This document shows positions 1 to 40,804 of a DNA stretch of 40,804 nt, piece by piece; within the stretch, counting starts at the first letter, position 1, and each line of letters opens with the position of its first letter. The position numbers and the translations under genes are program-made. Source of the stretch: an uncultured Pseudomonadota bacterium (GTDB lineage Bacteria > Pseudomonadota > Gammaproteobacteria > Burkholderiales > Methylophilaceae); NCBI GenBank assembly GCA_903876765.1, contig CAIRBH010000050.1, positions 1 to 40,804 of the forward strand, read 5' to 3'. The notes beneath the pieces were generated by a model that saw only the letters and a list, made by a program, of their open reading frames with translations, ran no database searches and was not told where the DNA came from.

Positions 1-1050
1 GTAAGTGCGAGTAGCTCAACTATTCAAGGCAGAACGCAGGTCAGTTTGACTGGAACTACAGGCAACAATACCTTAAGTGGTGGTAATAACAATGACACGA
101 TAGATGGTAGCTCAGGCAATGACAGCCTAGTTGGTGGCTCAGGCAACGATAGCCTAGTTGGTGGCTCAGGCAATGACACGATAGATGGTGGCAATAACAA
201 TGACACGATAAATGGTGGCGCAGGCAATGACAGCCTAGTTGGTGGCTCAGGCAACGACACCTTTGTGATGGCTAGTGTTTCTGGAAGTGATCAGACAGAC
301 ACCATCACCGACTGGGGAGCTAGTAATACATCAGACACCATCACTGGCAGTATGGGTGTTAATGATAAACTCTATGTGACGATGACTGGGACATCTACTA
401 AATTTGATGCAAGCAACATTACGGGAACTGGTAAGCTGAGCGTTACAGGTTCTGGCAGCAATGACACCATCATTGGTGGTGCAGGCAATGACACCATCAT
501 TGGTGGCAATGGTAATGACAGTATAAACGGTGGCTCAGGCAATGACAGCCTAGTTGGTGGCTTAGGCAATGACACGATAGTTGGTGGCGCAGGCAATGAC
601 ACGATAGATGGTGGCGCAGGCGTATACAGCATCACTGGTGGTGCTGGTAATGACAGCATGGATGCTGGCTCTGACTCCGTTACTGATACCTTTTATTGGA
701 CATTGGCTGATGCTGGCACTACCACAAATATAGCGATGGATAGCATTAGTAACTTTGGCACTTCCGATTCTACTTCGGGTGGTGATGTGCTGGATATCAA
801 AGATTTACTTCAAAATGAAAATGATACAGTTAGCACTTTAGCCAAGTACTTGCATTTTGAAAAATCTAGCGCAAATACCATTATTCATATTAGTGCAACG
901 GGTGCTTACTCCAGTGGTGGCAACAATTCAGAAGACGTGCAAACTATTACTTTAATCAACGTCGATTTATTCGGATTATATTCTGCAGCTACCGATAGCG
1001 ATATTATTACTAACTTGCTGACTGATAAAAAACTAATTGTCAATGTGTAG
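1..1050 (+). CDS. RTX-repeat type I secretion substrate, 3' end of a larger gene
   Basis: The reading frame is open from the first base with no stop, so this is the C-terminal part of a longer protein; the TTG at 46 is not a convincing start. Two blocks of glycine/aspartate-rich nonapeptides (GGxGNDxΦ pattern, such as GGSGNDSLV) are coded by about 64-261 and 454-657. Repeats of this kind form calcium-binding beta-rolls outside the cell. The last ~90 residues (VLDIKDLL, KYLHFEKS, VQTITLINVDL) match the type I secretion C-terminal target domain of the VCA0849 subclass. The protein should therefore be exported in one step by an ABC transporter/membrane-fusion/TolC machine, none of which is in the window. 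A haemolysin-like toxin, an adhesin or an S-layer-like protein are all possible, because the functional part lies upstream. The next gene carries a paralogous C-terminal domain. Confidence 0.85.
   Translation, partial: VSASSSTIQGRTQVSLTGTTGNNTLSGGNNNDTIDGSSGNDSLVGGSGNDSLVGGSGNDTIDGGNNNDTINGGAGNDSLVGGSGNDTFVMASVSGSDQTDTITDWGASNTSDTITGSMGVNDKLYVTMTGTSTKFDASNITGTGKLSVTGSGSNDTIIGGAGNDTIIGGNGNDSINGGSGNDSLVGGLGNDTIVGGAGNDTIDGGAGVYSITGGAGNDSMDAGSDSVTDTFYWTLADAGTTTNIAMDSISNFGTSDSTSGGDVLDIKDLLQNENDTVSTLAKYLHFEKSSANTIIHISATGAYSSGGNNSEDVQTITLINVDLFGLYSAATDSDIITNLLTDKKLIVNV
64..657 (+). repeat. Two blocks of 27-bp RTX nonapeptide-coding repeats
   Basis: Units of roughly 27 bp (or half-units) resembling ggtggctcaggcaatgacag recur at 64-261 and 454-657, many almost identical in DNA. 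They are separated by a non-repetitive spacer coding for about 64 residues. The near-identity suggests recent unit duplication or homogenisation, which would let unit number vary between strains. Confidence 0.8.
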
Positions 1051-3282: not shown

Positions 3283-4560
3283 CTAATTTTTATTATCCTT
3301 AAGCTGTGCTGATGATGCCGCTAGCTGCTGCACCCAGCTGAGTTGCCTAGGCAAGCAGATTGTTTGAAGGTCGTAATGCTCAATAGCAAATGCTCGGGCA
3401 TTTTTGCCTAGTTTTTTGCGCAGTTTGGCATTGGCTAATAGCTTAATCACTTCTTGGGCTAATGCCTGATGGTCAAAAAAATCTACTAAACGGCCAGTTT
3501 TATCATGAATAATGGCTTCATGTAGCGGCTGGGTGTTGCTGGCCACAATCGCACAGCCCACACTCATGGCTTCTAGCAGGCTCCATGACAATACAAATGG
3601 ATAAGTTAAATAGACGTGTACGCTAGAAAGCTGCAATAGGCTAATAAAGCCCTCATAGGGGATATGGCCTAAAAATCGCACGCGTTGCCAGTCGGCATCA
3701 CTGATGGCAGGCCTGACTTCTGCAATAAAAATTTCTTTCCATGATTTACCCGAGGCAGCTTTTTGGCCGTAGCTTACGCTGTCGCCGCCGACTATTAGCA
3801 CCTTGGCATTAGGGCGGGCTTTTAGTATGACTGGCAAGGCGCGCATAAAAATATGGTAGCCGCGGTAGGGCTCTAAATGGCGATTAACAAAGGTAATCAC
3901 TTCATCTTTTTTACTTAAGTTGAGCTCGGTTGAGCGTAGCTTGTTATTTAGGCTAATCGCAACTTCTGGGTTAGGTATTAGCTTTTTGGTATCTATGCCA
4001 TCATGGATGACAGAAATTTTAGGCTTAAAGTCGTTTGGAAAAGTGCTGGCCTGCCAATGGGTGGGTGAAATGCCTGCATCTGCAATAGCAAAATGCAATA
4101 GGTTGTTGACGTTTTTAAGCCTTATTCGGCAAGATTCACTATCATTTTTTTTTGAAAACTCAGGGTCAAAGTTAGCGTCAGCTTCGTCTGCCTTGTAGTA
4201 AAACTCGCAATAAATGCCCAGCTTAGCCGCTGGCCATACTTCTTTTAAGAATAGGCTTTCACCCCAGCCATGGTGGGCAACAATCACGTCGGGGTTAAAG
4301 CCAGTCTGCTTGAGCAATTGCGCCGCTTTAAAGCAGGCTTCACCGCGTATGGTTTGTGCTTCAATATCGCTCAACCATGGGTGAACGTTGGGCGTGCTGC
4401 CACGCGCAGCAGAATAGCTCAATAACTTAACGCCTTGCCAAGAGTTGGCCTCTATTTTTTGCATGGTCATGGCCAGCACTTCGTGACCTTGCGCCGCTAA
4501 GGCAGGTGCTAAAAATTTAAATTGACCGGGAAAGTTTTGGTGAACAAATAAGATTTTCAT
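3283..4560 (-). CDS. Family 4 (GT-B) glycosyltransferase
   Basis: 425 residues. The start MKILFVHQNFPGQF at 4560 is preferred over an upstream in-frame ATG because it matches the family N-terminus and overlaps the stop of the preceding gene by one base (TGATG), which implies translational coupling. The N-terminal half (HQNFPGQFKFLAPAL) resembles the GT4 subgroup with this conserved opening. The C-terminal half is a Glycos_transf_1 domain, with E330 in the LLEAMSVGCAIVAS donor-binding motif. It should transfer a sugar from a nucleotide donor in the cytoplasm; donor and acceptor are unknown. It is the second gene of a two-gene minus-strand operon and ends 20 bases from the tRNA, with which it is convergent. 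Confidence 0.85.
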   Translation of the reverse strand: MKILFVHQNFPGQFKFLAPALAAQGHEVLAMTMQKIEANSWQGVKLLSYSAARGSTPNVHPWLSDIEAQTIRGEACFKAAQLLKQTGFNPDVIVAHHGWGESLFLKEVWPAAKLGIYCEFYYKADEADANFDPEFSKKNDSESCRIRLKNVNNLLHFAIADAGISPTHWQASTFPNDFKPKISVIHDGIDTKKLIPNPEVAISLNNKLRSTELNLSKKDEVITFVNRHLEPYRGYHIFMRALPVILKARPNAKVLIVGGDSVSYGQKAASGKSWKEIFIAEVRPAISDADWQRVRFLGHIPYEGFISLLQLSSVHVYLTYPFVLSWSLLEAMSVGCAIVASNTQPLHEAIIHDKTGRLVDFFDHQALAQEVIKLLANAKLRKKLGKNARAFAIEHYDLQTICLPRQLSWVQQLAASSAQLKDNKN

Positions 4561-26592: not shown

Positions 26593-27399
26593 TTAATTGC
26601 TGGAATTGGGCAGAATATCTATGGCGCTGTTGTCTTGATTATCTGTTGCGTACAAAATCATAATCGACACGCGTCTATTTTTGCTTCGCCCCATGGCCGT
26701 TTCATTTTCATTAATCGGCTGAGTAGCGCCAAATGCTAAAGCGCTCAGTCTTTTATCGGCAATCCCTGCATCATTAAGCATACGCACCACGCTACTGGCT
26801 CTTATGGCGGATAGCTCCCAGTTAGAGAAAAATTCAGCATTATGTATAGCGATATTGTCGGTATGGCCTTCGACTTGAATCTGACGTTGGTTATCCTTTA
26901 ATTTGCCAGCAATGTCATTGATAATATTGCTCGCGGTTGCCGCCAAGGCTGCTGATCCTTGGTTAAATAGCAGACTTTCGTTGATGTCTATGCGCAAACC
27001 TCGGCTATTTTGTACCAGACGTATTTTACCTTCGCTCATCAGAGGTGAAAGTTTGTTGGAGATATCTATACCCATGTTAGCCATAGATTCTCGTTCTCTA
27101 CGCATTTTTTCTTGATAAATATAGCTAAGAGGCAGGGGTTTAATGATGGTCATCGCTTGATTTTTTTGCATATTAGCAGCCTCGGTATTTTGCTTAGTGA
27201 TTAAGTGTTGTGAAAATTTTTGCCCAGCAAAAGCACCCTCTATCGCCATTGCCATCTGGTCATATTTGCTGAGGTTGACCGATGAAATAGAATACATCAC
27301 CACAAAAAATGCAAATAGCAAGGTGATAAAATCAGCGTAAGAAATCAGCCAGCGCTCAGGGTTATCATCGTCATCATCTAGTGGTCTTCTTCTGATCAT
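26593..27399 (-). CDS. motD: Flagellar stator protein MotD (MotB family)
   Basis: 268 residues. One transmembrane helix (LISYADFITLLFAFFVVMYS, ~18-37) contains D23, equivalent to the proton-binding Asp of MotB. The C-terminal OmpA-like peptidoglycan-binding domain shows QVEGHTDNIAIHNAEFFSN (~176-194) and NRRVSI. An acidic DDDDDN run precedes the helix. It forms the second stator with MotC, generating torque from ion flow. The order fliA-motC-motD resembles the MotCD set of Pseudomonas more than MotAB. It is the last gene of the flhB operon, 43 bases after motC, without a clear terminator. Confidence 0.92.
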   Translation of the reverse strand: MIRRRPLDDDDDNPERWLISYADFITLLFAFFVVMYSISSVNLSKYDQMAMAIEGAFAGQKFSQHLITKQNTEAANMQKNQAMTIIKPLPLSYIYQEKMRRERESMANMGIDISNKLSPLMSEGKIRLVQNSRGLRIDINESLLFNQGSAALAATASNIINDIAGKLKDNQRQIQVEGHTDNIAIHNAEFFSNWELSAIRASSVVRMLNDAGIADKRLSALAFGATQPINENETAMGRSKNRRVSIMILYATDNQDNSAIDILPNSSN

Positions 27400-27442: not shown

Positions 27443-28183
27443 TTAACCTAGGTAGGCATCTAAGCGGTCTTTAACTATGCGTGGATGATCGTTGCTAGCA
27501 ATGGCACACCATGCGTTGATTAGCATTTCACGGCGCATGATCTCATTTTGTAATAGCACTTTTAGCTTATGGGCGATAGGTAAAAATACTAGATTGGCTA
27601 GGCCTACGCCATATATGGTGGATACGAAAGCCACTGCAATGCCACTACCAAGATTGCTAGGGTCAGACAGATTTTCCATGACATGAACTAAGCCCAGTAC
27701 TGCGCCTAATATGCCTATGGTCGGTGCATAGCCCCCCGCGGCGCTCCATATCTTTGCGGCATTACGTTGTTGCATTTCATAAATGTACAGATCGATAGCG
27801 CAAATTTGCCTAATTTTTTCTGGGTCATTGCCGTCGACCATGAGGCGCAGCCCTTTAACAATAAATGGCTCAGTTTCTTGGATTAAATGTGACTCTAATA
27901 AAAAAATACCCTGTTTGCGCGATAGGTGGCTCCAAGTGTTGATGCGGTCGGCTATGGCTTGTCTGTCGTCCGTGGGCGGGGAAAATATCGACTTAGCCAT
28001 GCCTAGGCCAGCGATAAAGCTCTTGCCGCTAGTTTGCAATAGCACTGCGCCAAAAGTGCCAAAAATCACGATCACAAAAGCCGCTGGCTGCACTAAAGAG
28101 CTGATGTTGCCGCCTTCTATGCTTTGGCCGATTAAGATGCCGATGACGGCAACGGTGATACCGCTTATGCTGCTCCAGTCCAT
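27443..28183 (-). CDS. motC: Flagellar stator protein MotC (MotA family)
   Basis: 246 residues with four predicted membrane helices. Hallmarks are SIEGGNISSLVQPAAFVIVIFGTFGAVLLQ (in two pieces around 21-50) and GYAPTIGILGAVLGLVHVMENL (~151-172), where the conserved proline sits in the third helix. It is shorter than MotA and matches the MotC/PomA-like group. It partners MotD. The start at 28183 lies inside the 3' end of fliA (19-base overlap), with AGAGAG as ribosome site, so expression is coupled to fliA. Confidence 0.92.
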   Translation of the reverse strand: MDWSSISGITVAVIGILIGQSIEGGNISSLVQPAAFVIVIFGTFGAVLLQTSGKSFIAGLGMAKSIFSPPTDDRQAIADRINTWSHLSRKQGIFLLESHLIQETEPFIVKGLRLMVDGNDPEKIRQICAIDLYIYEMQQRNAAKIWSAAGGYAPTIGILGAVLGLVHVMENLSDPSNLGSGIAVAFVSTIYGVGLANLVFLPIAHKLKVLLQNEIMRREMLINAWCAIASNDHPRIVKDRLDAYLG

Positions 28184-34837: not shown

Positions 34838-34878
34838 TAGCCTTGTAGGTGTTTGTAAGACAAACACCTACAAGGCTA
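34838..34878. repeat. 19-bp perfect inverted repeat with 3-base loop in the flhD leader region
   Basis: Arms tagccttgtaggtgtttgt (34838-34856) and its exact complement (34860-34878) flank the loop aag. It would form a very stable hairpin in RNA in either direction. No T tract follows on the plus strand, and on the minus strand only a short A/T stretch, so it is not a standard terminator. It lies ~120 bases before flhD. Options are a leader control structure, a protein binding site, or a small repeat element; I saw no second copy in the window. Confidence 0.85.
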
Positions 34879-34999
34879 TGGCTGTTCGTCCGACCCAATA
34901 TACCGACAAGCGCTAATTGTATGCAATGCTTAACGCGTTCAAAGTACGTCCCATAGGTAATACACCTATTAACAGATGTTCTTACTTAAGGGGATTGAA

Positions 35000-35317
35000 A
35001 TGAATGAAATAGAAATTTTGTCAGAAATAAGAGATGCCAACCTAAACTATTTAATGTTGGCGCAACAACTTATTCGTTCAGACAAAGCCACGGCAATTTT
35101 CCGTTTAGGCATTAGTAAAGATATCGCTGATTTACTAGAAGGCCTGAGTAATTTGCAATTACTCAAACTCAGTACTAGCAATATGATGCTAGCGCGCTTC
35201 CGTTTTGATGATAGCGCAATTCTTGGCATGTTAACCAACTACAGCAAAGATCGTTCGCAAGCACATTTGCACACTGCGGTGCTGATGGCTGGACAAACTG
35301 CTGAGGCTATCGCCTAG
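35000..35317 (+). CDS. flhD: Flagellar master regulator subunit FlhD
   Basis: 105 residues from the ATG at 35000, which has AAGGGGA five bases upstream; an in-frame ATG at 34976 would add eight non-family residues and has no ribosome site. The sequence MNEIEILSEIRDANLNYLML AQQLIRSDKA (two pieces) and the helical C-terminus match FlhD. FlhD and FlhC form the FlhD4C2 activator of class 2 flagellar promoters. flhC follows after 31 bases. The long upstream region suggests complex control, as in enteric bacteria. Confidence 0.95.
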   Translation: MNEIEILSEIRDANLNYLMLAQQLIRSDKATAIFRLGISKDIADLLEGLSNLQLLKLSTSNMMLARFRFDDSAILGMLTNYSKDRSQAHLHTAVLMAGQTAEAIA

Positions 35318-35936: not shown

Positions 35937-36821
35937 ATGCAACCTAGCTTAAAAAAACATGCGCTGGCTCAACACCTGTTAAATAGCTGTGTTGAGCGCA
36001 ATTTTAGGCAACAGGCTAAGCCCTACATCAAGCGAATTTTTCAACGTATAACGCAAGTGCCAGTACTATTAGCCGTTATCGCGCAGACGATCGCCTTGTT
36101 TGCGGTACTGGCAATAGTTAAGCTAATTAGCCTACTGGCAATCACTTATTTTAATGGCGTTATCAATTACCCATTTTTTCTATTAGTCTGTATGCAAGCA
36201 TTAATGGCTAGCTTGGTGTCTTATTCTTTAGGTATGGCCAGTTGGTGGCGTGCCATACATTTTATTTTCCCCTTAGCAGTTTGGTTGATGTGCTTATGGC
36301 AACTGCCTAATCAAATTTATTTAGCTGGATTGATACTGAGTTTTAGCGTGTTTTGGAGCACTTTTCGCAGTCAAGTGCCTTTTTTCCCTTCTCGCCCTAT
36401 CGTTTGGCAGCGGCTGGCTAAGCTGATGCCGCAAGCTAGGTCAGTGCGCTTAATCGATATAGGCAGTGGCTTGGGTGATGTGGCTATGCATATTGCTAAG
36501 CTGCGGCCAGATAGCCAGATTGAAGGCATAGAAGTCGCACCGTTGCCTTGGTTAGTGAGTTATCTGCGTGCCAAGCTGCAGCGCAGCAACGCTATTTTTA
36601 AGCTGGGCGACTACCGTAGCTTAAATTTTGCACACTATGATGTTATTTTTGCTTATTTGTCACCAGTGGCCATGCCTGCTTTGTGGCAAAAAGCCAGTCA
36701 AGAAATGCGTTCAGGCAGTCTGTTAATTAGCTTGGAATTTGATATACCAGGCGTTGCAAGCAGCTTACGCATTGCTGGCAGTAAAAATGCGCCCATGCTG
36801 TATGTTTGGAAGCTACCCTAA
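35937..36821 (+). CDS. Membrane-anchored SAM methyltransferase, FAM173/ATPSCKMT-like
   Basis: 294 residues. About four hydrophobic segments lie between 41 and 142. A class I methyltransferase core follows: motif I IDIGSGLGD (173-181), an acidic residue at the end of strand 2 (GIEVAPLPWLVSYLRAKL, 197-214), GDYRSL (224-229) and YDVIFAYLSPVAMPALWQK (234-252). The pattern E-x-x-P-x-x-x-x-S-x-x-RA, then YDVIF..P..M..L..K and LISLEFDIPG, is like that of the FAM173/ATPSCKMT family, whose known member methylates a lysine of ATP synthase subunit c. That likeness is from memory, not a search. It sits between flhC and motA with a 21-base gap from flhC, so it may modify a membrane or flagellar protein. 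It could also be a lipid or small-molecule methyltransferase. The start has no strong ribosome site. Confidence 0.75.
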   Translation: MQPSLKKHALAQHLLNSCVERNFRQQAKPYIKRIFQRITQVPVLLAVIAQTIALFAVLAIVKLISLLAITYFNGVINYPFFLLVCMQALMASLVSYSLGMASWWRAIHFIFPLAVWLMCLWQLPNQIYLAGLILSFSVFWSTFRSQVPFFPSRPIVWQRLAKLMPQARSVRLIDIGSGLGDVAMHIAKLRPDSQIEGIEVAPLPWLVSYLRAKLQRSNAIFKLGDYRSLNFAHYDVIFAYLSPVAMPALWQKASQEMRSGSLLISLEFDIPGVASSLRIAGSKNAPMLYVWKLP

Positions 36822-40409: not shown

Positions 40410-40804
40410 ATGGGTGCAGAAAACATAGGTAATGATATAGTAAATTGGGCTAATGAGGTCGCCAGTGAGGTTAAAAATGGTTTTGACCAGATAAGTAATT
40501 ATGATCTACAGCACCTCAACCCAGCACAACTTGTTGAGCTTAGTGCGGATCAAATTGCCAGTCGGTTTACTGAATTCACAACCAGTCAGCTTCAAAGTTT
40601 TACAACTGGGCAGCTTGCTACTTTGGCGGCGGATAAAGTTGCCAGTCGCATTGGCGATTTCACAGCCAGTCAGCTTCAAAGTTTTACAACTGGGCAGCTT
40701 GCTACTTTGACGGCGGCTAACGTTGCCATTCGCATTGGCGATTTCACAACCAGTCAGCTTCAAAGTTTTACAACTGGGCAGCTTGCTACTTTGGCGGCGG
40801 ATAA
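40410..40804 (+). CDS. Octapeptide-repeat protein, 5' part (runs off the window)
   Basis: The ATG at 40410 has an excellent ribosome site (aaaaggaga, 40396-40404). The frame is open to the last base, so at least 131 codons are present. A non-repetitive head (MGAENIGNDIVNWANEVASE...) has no signal peptide. From about residue 36 the protein consists of octads of the form [F/L]-[T/S]-x-x-Q-[L/I]-x-[S/T], grouped as three octads plus four residues (RIGD), giving a 28-residue unit. Repeats of this FTTSQLQS/FTTGQLAT kind are, as far as I recall, found in large secreted or surface proteins of several proteobacteria; export by type I secretion would fit the missing signal peptide. The downstream end would decide this. 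No enzymatic motif is seen. Confidence 0.8.
   Translation, partial: MGAENIGNDIVNWANEVASEVKNGFDQISNYDLQHLNPAQLVELSADQIASRFTEFTTSQLQSFTTGQLATLAADKVASRIGDFTASQLQSFTTGQLATLTAANVAIRIGDFTTSQLQSFTTGQLATLAAD
40575..40804 (+). repeat. 84-bp tandem repeats coding for 28-residue units
   Basis: Units start at 40575, 40659 and 40743 (the last cut by the window edge). The first two full units differ at only 5 of 84 bases. A more diverged half-unit precedes them (LNPAQLVE LSADQIAS RFTE, 40509-40574 region). Such near-identity implies recent tandem duplication and likely length variation between strains. Confidence 0.9.

What the first reader, a model, noticed from the sequence alone, without database searches (positions are those of the whole stretch)
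35937..36821. FAM173/ATPSCKMT-like membrane methyltransferase embedded in the flhDC-motAB cluster
A protein with four hydrophobic segments and a class I methyltransferase core sits between the flagellar master regulator and the stator. Its post-motif pattern resembles the lysine methyltransferases that act on the c-ring of ATP synthase. The neighbouring proteins include proton-channel stators and an export gate, so lysine methylation of a membrane motor protein (MotA, FlhA) or of the c subunit is a testable idea. I know of no described role for such an enzyme in flagella.
Basis: partly seen in the sequence, partly recalled or inferred. Interest (0 to 1): 0.7.

Follow-up and report, generated by a model that had tools for sequence, protein, structure and literature searches.

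The report
Membrane methyltransferase tied to flagellar motor
A gene beside the flagellar motor genes encodes a membrane-bound enzyme that looks like a protein-lysine methyltransferase; its relatives in other bacteria often sit next to the genes for the motor's stator, so it may chemically modify the motor.

Summary
Window 35937-36821 (+) encodes 294 aa: four membrane helices plus a class I methyltransferase, between flhC and motA. A family profile hits the archaeal lysine methyltransferase aKMT (5fa8, E 6e-16), about 30 bits above anything except 5bxy; the predicted fold agrees. Reviews place FAM173A/B in that aKMT-like group. No lipid or quinone model neared its cut-off.

The flagellar link is real. 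In the genus, gene and motA are both present in 21 and both absent in 16 of 37 genomes. In the order, 107 of 108 carriers have motA, against 134 of 200 overall. In 84 of 108 the gene lies near motA, beside another stator gene, or beside flhDC; 24 lie elsewhere. In three genomes of one genus motA and motB are split, and the gene follows motB with a 4-nt overlap.

Best reading: a stator-linked lysine methyltransferase, most likely acting on MotB's cytoplasmic tail. The substrate is inferred: the lysine signal does not stand out once phylogeny is considered. The ATP-synthase c subunit is unlikely.

The parts
35937..36821 (+). stator-linked membrane methyltransferase (called MTF here), 294 aa
36060..36353 (+). 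four-helix membrane domain (residues 42-139; helices 42-72, 80-97, 102-121, 125-139)
   Evidence: AlphaFold2 model and hydropathy
36375..36392 (+). V-P-[FL]-[FY]-[PL]-S-type pre-methyltransferase motif (residues 147-152), V147 and P148 invariant in 35 of 35
   Evidence: alignment A2
36396..36812 (+). class I methyltransferase domain (about residues 154-292), aKMT-like
36456..36470 (+). SAM-binding motif I, D174-I-G-S-G178; D174, G176 and G178 invariant in 35 of 35
   Evidence: a motif I Asp (Asp94) is needed for FAM173B activity (PMC5828452, passages); that D174 is its equivalent is inferred from the motif
34976..35317 (+). flhD, flagellar master regulator
   Evidence: PF05247, NF002783
35349..35915 (+). 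flhC, flagellar master regulator
   Evidence: PF05280, NF009365
37007..37867 (+). motA, stator subunit of MotA1 type
   Evidence: TIGR03818, 395 bits
37913..38845 (+). motB, stator subunit
   Evidence: PF13677, PF00691
37946..37960 (+). candidate substrate: K12-R-I-K15-K16 in the cytoplasmic tail of MotB (inferred)
   Evidence: suggestive only

Best explanation
The gene encodes an inner-membrane, SAM-dependent protein-lysine methyltransferase of the archaeal-KMT/FAM173-like kind that serves the flagellar stator. Four N-terminal helices hold it in the membrane with its catalytic domain in the cytoplasm. Its most likely substrate is the short basic cytoplasmic tail of MotB just before the membrane helix (P-I-I-V-K-R-I-K-K), above all the K15/K16 pair; a MotA cytoplasmic lysine (K55 the best by the same test) is second. 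Methylation would happen as MotB is inserted or as MotA and MotB assemble. It would keep the positive charge but add bulk and hydrophobicity, tuning the tail's contact with lipid or MotA and so stator stability or output. SHOWN: ORF, family relation, predicted fold, linkage, co-occurrence, the motB-only arrangement in one genus. INFERRED: lysine specificity, the substrate, the topology, the effect.
For: Profile of 35 members: best solved structures are aKMT (5fa8/5fad 61.9 bits, E 5.7e-16; 5jwj 56.3 bits) and 5bxy (48.9 bits); next is MitM at 32 bits. Fold search of the model: ranks 1-5 are 5bxy and aKMT (target TM-scores up to 0.87 and 0.83). NF041081, archaeal protein-lysine methyltransferase, is the NCBIfam model matched by most members, 21 of 35 at E <= 0.01 (cut-off not shown; the window protein is not among the 21). 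Co-occurrence: genus 21 both, 16 neither, 0 discordant; order 107 both, 1 gene only, 27 motA only, 65 neither of 200. Linkage in the order: 63 downstream and 13 upstream of motA on the same strand within 5 kb, 1 on the opposite strand, 7 more beside flhDC or another stator gene, 24 elsewhere, of 108; 27 of 32 carrier families have at least one linked genome. Same class, other orders: motB upstream on the same strand in 9 of 15 loci read (6 adjacent, 3 with about 1.3 kb between). G063, G173, G226 (one genus): one close MotB each, away from MotA and followed by this gene; the MotA loci read for G063 and G226 hold no MotB. A start codon of the gene overlaps the motB stop by 4 nt in those three and in L026, L073, L203, L205 and L206. 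MotB columns that drop most in genomes lacking the gene: 6 of the top 7 of 74 lie in residues 9-25, K16 second and K15 fourth.
Against: No biochemical evidence. Phylogeny-aware tests do not single out the lysines: K15 of MotB ranks 9 of 81 columns (LRT 8.7), K16 54, K12 63; MotA K55 ranks 10 of 91. The pattern K-[RK]-[IVL]-K-K is still present in 11 of 23 and 20 of 45 MotB tails from genomes without the gene (same order; rest of class), against 108 of 119 and 14 of 16 with it. 27 of 134 motA-bearing genomes of the order lacked the gene in the single-protein search (25 after the profile search added G122 and G155), so it is not generally needed for motility. 24 of 108 carriers have it away from the flagellar genes queried. 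The split-motB case is one genus, so probably one event. Linkage could reflect shared regulation. Short relatives in other classes showed no named flagellar family among 10 neighbours scanned. Lysine specificity rests on homologues only.
Confidence: 0.5

Rival explanations
1. Same enzyme class, but the substrate is MotA: a lysine on its cytoplasmic loops (for example K55 or K112) is methylated, by analogy with FAM173, whose targets are ring-forming membrane proteins.
For: MotA is the adjacent gene in the flhDC-gene-motAB order. MotA K55 is K in 124 of 125 carriers of the order, against 14 of 22 and 15 of 20 sequences without the gene. MotA forms a ring (recalled), as the reviews say of ANT and the c subunit (PMC9006661, passages).
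Against: In G063, G173 and G226 the gene stays with motB. K55 and K112 are K in only 7 and 5 of 9 carriers in the rest of the class.
Confidence: 0.17
2. It methylates another flagellar protein (FlhA, FliG, FliF, flagellin or a chemotaxis protein) and sits beside stator genes only through co-regulation.
For: Gene is 21 bp from flhC in the window; beside flhDC with motAB far off in G052 and G142; downstream of motC-motD in G113. Flagellin lysine methylation exists elsewhere (FliB; PMC8598068, PMC7181671, titles and abstract starts in listing).
Against: Repeated adjacency to stator genes, including a motB away from motA. I queried only the window's flagellar genes (flhDC, flhABF, fleN, fliA, motABCD), so attachment to other fli, flg or che genes was not tested.
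Confidence: 0.15
3. It methylates the ATP-synthase c subunit, like FAM173B.
For: Relation of the core to the aKMT/FAM173 group.
Against: The gene is lost with flagella while the c subunit stays (4 of 4 genomes searched); c subunits are nearly identical with and without the gene.
Confidence: 0.03
4. It is a small-molecule, lipid or quinone methyltransferase active in the membrane and only regulated with flagella.
For: Membrane helices; single-sequence hits include a cyclopropane fatty acid synthase model (21 bits against a cut-off of 600), and 17 of 35 members match it weakly.
Against: No lipid or quinone model near its cut-off; profile and fold prefer aKMT; flagellar co-occurrence.
Confidence: 0.1
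5. It no longer works as an enzyme but as a MotB-binding assembly factor or chaperone, like FlgX of Campylobacter in role.
For: motB coupling; a stator chaperone exists (FlgX, PMC6686046, title and abstract start in listing).
Against: SAM motif residues D174, G176, G178 and E199 are invariant in 35 of 35 aligned members.
Confidence: 0.05

Closest known systems
aKMT (Sulfolobus islandicus protein-lysine methyltransferase; PDB 5fa8, 5fad, 5jwj)
   Same: Methyltransferase core by profile (E 6e-16 over profile 107-252) and fold
   Different: The aKMT chain is 161 residues without the membrane domain, and a review calls it broad in specificity (PMC9006661, passages); this one has four membrane helices and flagellar linkage
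FAM173B / ATPSc-KMT and FAM173A / ANT-KMT
   Same: Membrane segment, then a pre-methyltransferase stretch, then an aKMT-like core (PMC9006661, passages); motif I Asp (PMC5828452, passages)
   Different: Four helices instead of one; no c-subunit correlation; bacterial and flagellar; not compared by sequence here
Short relatives in other classes of the phylum, probably alphaproteobacteria (for example L216:4264-4791, 175 aa)
   Same: 28% identity over 173 residues, with a single hydrophobic N-terminal stretch, close to the FAM173 layout
   Different: Lack the four-helix domain; no named flagellar family among 10 neighbours scanned in 5 loci
FliB, flagellin lysine methylase
   Same: Lysine methylation of a flagellar protein
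   Different: FliB uses a [4Fe-4S] cluster and modifies the filament (PMC8598068, title and abstract start); no invariant or nearly invariant Cys in this family
FlgX, stator chaperone of Campylobacter
   Same: Possible role in stator assembly (PMC6686046, title and abstract start)
   Different: Sequence relation not tested

Membership tests
Archaeal KMT-like (aKMT) methyltransferases | Sequence-profile relation to aKMT over the whole core | tested here: met
   5fa8 E 5.7e-16, profile 107-252; apart from 5bxy the next is MitM 7e-7
Archaeal KMT-like (aKMT) methyltransferases | Same fold | tested here: met
   Foldseek ranks 1-5 are 5bxy and aKMT, target TM 0.76-0.87, on a predicted model
Archaeal KMT-like (aKMT) methyltransferases | Reaches the curated NCBIfam cut-off of NF041081 | tested here: inconclusive
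   21 of 35 members match at E <= 0.01, best 6.9e-7; cut-off not shown; the window protein itself does not match at that E and it is not among its 15 hits at E <= 1
Archaeal KMT-like (aKMT) methyltransferases | Lysine-specific methyl transfer | not testable with these tools
   needs an enzyme assay
FAM173A/B | Membrane segment, pre-methyltransferase stretch, methyltransferase domain in that order | tested here: met
   Order of parts met, but with four helices rather than one; three short relatives read as ORFs have one hydrophobic stretch
FAM173A/B | Motif I Asp needed for activity | tested here: met
   D174 invariant in 35 of 35; equivalence inferred from the motif
FAM173A/B | Orthology by direct sequence or tree comparison | not tested
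   no eukaryotic FAM173 sequence was used
FAM173A/B | Target is ATP-synthase c or ANT | tested here: inconclusive
   co-occurrence and c-subunit comparison argue against c; ANT is mitochondrial
Lipid, quinone or tetrapyrrole methyltransferases (CFA synthase, UbiE, CbiT) | Score at or above curated cut-off | tested here: not met
   21 of 600, 11.8 of 158 and 22 of 78 bits for the window protein
FliB flagellin methylase | Conserved cysteines for an iron-sulphur cluster | tested here: not met
   no invariant or nearly invariant Cys in A2

The most novel reading that the evidence does not exclude
A dedicated enzyme, common in betaproteobacteria and present in part of the other gammaproteobacteria, installs lysine methylation on the cytoplasmic tail of MotB as a standard part of building the stator: a covalent modification of the flagellar engine itself, made by a bacterial relative of the enzymes that methylate the rotary ring and the nucleotide carrier of mitochondria.
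Probability: 0.33. Interest if true: 0.85.

Novelty: new variant of a known kind. Interest (0 to 1): 0.68.

Why it matters
None of my six searches for it listed a paper whose title or shown abstract describes a stator-modifying enzyme. If real, it adds a layer of control or assembly to one of the best studied molecular machines, one that several motA-bearing genomes in the sample lack. It would also give prokaryotic relatives of FAM173 a substrate and suggest a shared theme: membrane-held lysine methyltransferases that act on ion-driven or transport machines. The split motB loci give a sharp, cheap prediction to test.

Tried and rejected
Single-sequence Pfam and NCBIfam gave only sub-threshold generic methyltransferase matches. 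Plasmid records: one weak hit. c-subunit target: rejected. Neighbours of the 24 unlinked copies: 54 neighbour ORFs scanned, chosen from those listed (91 refs plus one further ORF); no flagellar family among the 25 of 37 families shown; ORF calling in those loci was by length only. Simple K-frequency comparison looked promising for MotB K15/K16; its carrier group mixed some loci of other orders and repeats, so I use the cleaned groups instead. An all-column ranking supported the tail region. Phylogeny-aware fits showed that other columns score as high: in the first set of 23 columns only A25 scored above K15, but in the wider set of 81 eight columns did, so I downgraded the lysine claim. Promoter and terminator scan: counts within the range of the shuffles. 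One search was a failed run (the optimiser did not move) and is not used.

Rows dropped: MotA/MotB sequences of 250/200 aa or less, exact duplicates, and loci on the script's skip list (repeat places, and places of relatives already counted or without a clear label). G216 (gene found only by profile) was not in the MotA/MotB comparison.

Full report
THE OBJECT. Window 35937-36821 (+) is an intact 294-codon ORF, 21 bp after flhC and 185 bp before motA. FlhD, FlhC, MotA1 and MotB are named by Pfam/NCBIfam. The genus is probably Methylotenera: same-genus genome G014 has the gene at the same contig position as the named record L107, Methylotenera oryzisoli. AlphaFold2 on a 35-member alignment gives mean pLDDT 88.8 with four long helices before a Rossmann-like domain. 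Charges (N tail K+R 3.6, D+E 0.7 on average; the stretch after helix 4 also positive) favour a cytoplasmic N tail and catalytic domain.

WHAT FAMILY. The single sequence gives weak generic hits and 5bxy at E 0.0026. The profile is clearer: aKMT of Sulfolobus islandicus (5fa8/5fad E 5.7e-16; 5jwj 3e-14), 5bxy 5.5e-12, then MitM at 7e-7 and HemK at 5.5e-6. Foldseek ranks 1-5 are 5bxy and aKMT. 5bxy's title, 'RNA methyltransferase', is a depositor's label. NF041081 (archaeal protein-lysine methyltransferase) is the NCBIfam model matched by most members, 21 of 35, but not by the window protein itself at that E-value. Two reviews put FAM173A/B in an 'Archaeal KMT-like' group, say that they target the ring-forming inner-membrane proteins ATPSc (K43) and ANT (K52) on the matrix side, and mention alphaproteobacterial homologues (PMC10238732, PMC9006661; passages). 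Thirteen columns are invariant in the 35: V147, P148, D174, G176, G178, G197, E199, L241, S242, P243, M246, S265 and F268. Several are shared with 5bxy or aKMT in the printed alignments.

WHERE IT OCCURS. Genus: 21 of 37 genomes have it (E < 1e-60). The same 21 have MotA and the other 16 have neither; four of the 16 are at least 95% complete, so some absences may be assembly gaps. Order: 108 of 200 at E <= 1e-10; MotA in 134; both 107, gene only 1 (G134, where the gene lies at the end of a contig), MotA only 27, neither 65; Fisher p 2e-29, not corrected for phylogeny. The profile search added three divergent carriers, G122, G155 and G216 (E <= 1e-27), two of which have MotA; G216 does not, making a second gene-only genome. 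Class: 18 of 281 genomes (15 outside the order) have a match that starts before profile position 30, taken as full length; 17 of the 18 have MotB at E <= 1e-20 (not G313), against 66 of 281 overall. Phylum: of 199 genomes, 13 of other classes (probably alphaproteobacteria) have matches to the methyltransferase part only; three that I could read as ORFs are 175-186 aa with one hydrophobic N-terminal stretch.

LINKAGE. Genus: all 21 loci read lie between flhC and motA (in L003, L007 and L019 a contig end cuts part of the cluster). Order: of 108, 77 lie within 5 kb of motA (63 downstream and 13 upstream on the same strand, 1, G154, on the opposite strand). Seven more lie beside flhDC (G052, G142), beside a motB without motA (G063, G173, G226; G185 at a contig end) or after motC-motD (G113). 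Twenty-four lie elsewhere. For the downstream set, motB between the two was read directly in the loci fetched and otherwise inferred from the roughly 1-kb spacing; in G053, G079 and G194 the spacing is 2-4 kb. 27 of 32 carrier families have at least one linked genome; f21, f25, f37, f42 and f48 have none. Of the 80 best named loci, 79 have MotA directly downstream and the last (L110) has flhDC upstream; they are the nearest relatives and so a biased set. Same class, other orders: motB upstream on the same strand in 9 of 15 loci read, in three of them (one family) with about 1.3 kb between (in L211 an RsgA-like ORF on the other strand, named by eye); in 6 of 15 no MotA or MotB was found in the stretch read, some of them short contigs.

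A NATURAL EXPERIMENT. In G063, G173 and G226 (one genus) the only close MotB (54-55%) is away from MotA. The MotA loci read for G063 and G226 hold no MotB, and further MotB-like hits are at 27-31% identity. The gene follows this motB; in L079 motB ends at 4527 and the gene starts at 4524, among glutamine-synthetase-like, aminotransferase-like and other ORFs that look non-flagellar (by eye). A start codon placed for the same 4-nt overlap occurs in other lineages (L026, L073, L203, L205, L206). These three genomes are one lineage, hence probably one event, but they point to MotB as the partner.

WHICH LYSINE. If the catalytic domain is cytoplasmic and MotB the substrate, only the tail is reachable. 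MotB has the tail P-I-I-V-K12-R-I-K15-K16-...-G-H-H-G-G-A-W-K27. After removing duplicates, K12, K15 and K16 are K in 115, 117 and 114 of 119 carriers of the order and in 16, 14 and 16 of 16 other carriers, against 18, 17 and 16 of 23 and 38, 29 and 33 of 45 sequences without the gene. Of 74 MotB columns conserved in both carrier groups, the largest drops in non-carriers are A25, K16, P267, K15, I9, K12 and G20. Correlated-evolution fits on a MotB tree built without the tail gave K15 LRT 8.7 (loss rate 0.49 without, 0.07 with the gene): second to A25 (10.6) among 23 columns, but ninth among 81 in the wider set, and K16 and K12 are not significant. MotA K55 behaves similarly (rank 10 of 91). 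I take this as a pointer, not proof.

REJECTED TARGET. The c subunit is present in all four well-completed genus genomes without the gene that I searched and in the window's genome. The proteins are nearly identical, with the same mid-protein lysine.

HOW IT MAY WORK (inferred). The enzyme sits in the inner membrane and methylates lysines near the membrane on the tail of newly made MotB. Methyl groups keep the charge but change lipid and protein contacts, which could aid MotA-MotB assembly or set stator output. FAM173's two substrates are also inner-membrane machines with the lysine on the equivalent face (PMC9006661, passages).

LITERATURE. Searches combining methyltransferase with flhDC/motA, stator/MotA/lysine methylation, flagellar cluster/Ralstonia, MotB/N-terminal/lysine/methylat, SAM-dependent methyltransferase/motA/motB/flhC and MotB/stator/betaproteobacteria listed no paper whose title or shown abstract start describes such an enzyme. 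The listed papers were not read, long lists were shown in part (15 of 59), and subscription journals are mostly missing.

VERDICT. Real, conserved and flagellum-linked; an aKMT/FAM173-like enzyme by profile and predicted fold; a stator protein, most likely MotB, as substrate is a good but untested inference.

Noticed in passing
window 34838-34878: A perfect 19-bp inverted repeat (3-nt spacer) about 100 bp upstream of flhD; its 25-bp core TAGGTGTTTGTNNNACAAACACCTA is found exactly in 26 of 332 fetched loci, all of them loci of this flhDC cluster (L001 and L176 are the window itself, and some others may be the same record). Possibly a conserved operator of the flagellar master regulator.
   Followed up: partly
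window 27443-28183 and 26593-27399 (-): A second stator pair (PRK09109-like MotC and MotD) beside fliA, so this genome has two stator sets. In G113 the methyltransferase sits right after the motC-motD pair.
   Followed up: partly
window 40545-40804: Tandem array of an 84-bp unit, 3.1 copies, 90% matches, running to the window's end.
   Followed up: no
   Followed up: no
L014 (G031): The genus copy here carries an in-frame TGA: a sequencing error or a decaying copy beside motAB.
   Followed up: no
L056, L062, L075, L090: A divergent subgroup has QRPESM where the family has LSP..M; in three of the four no flagellar query hit lies in the stretch read, and one (L075) lies between motB and flhB on the opposite strand.
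   Followed up: partly
window 46-1050: ORF with weak RTX/calcium-repeat matches and a type I secretion C-terminal domain (TIGR03661, above its cut-off) at the window's edge.
   Followed up: no
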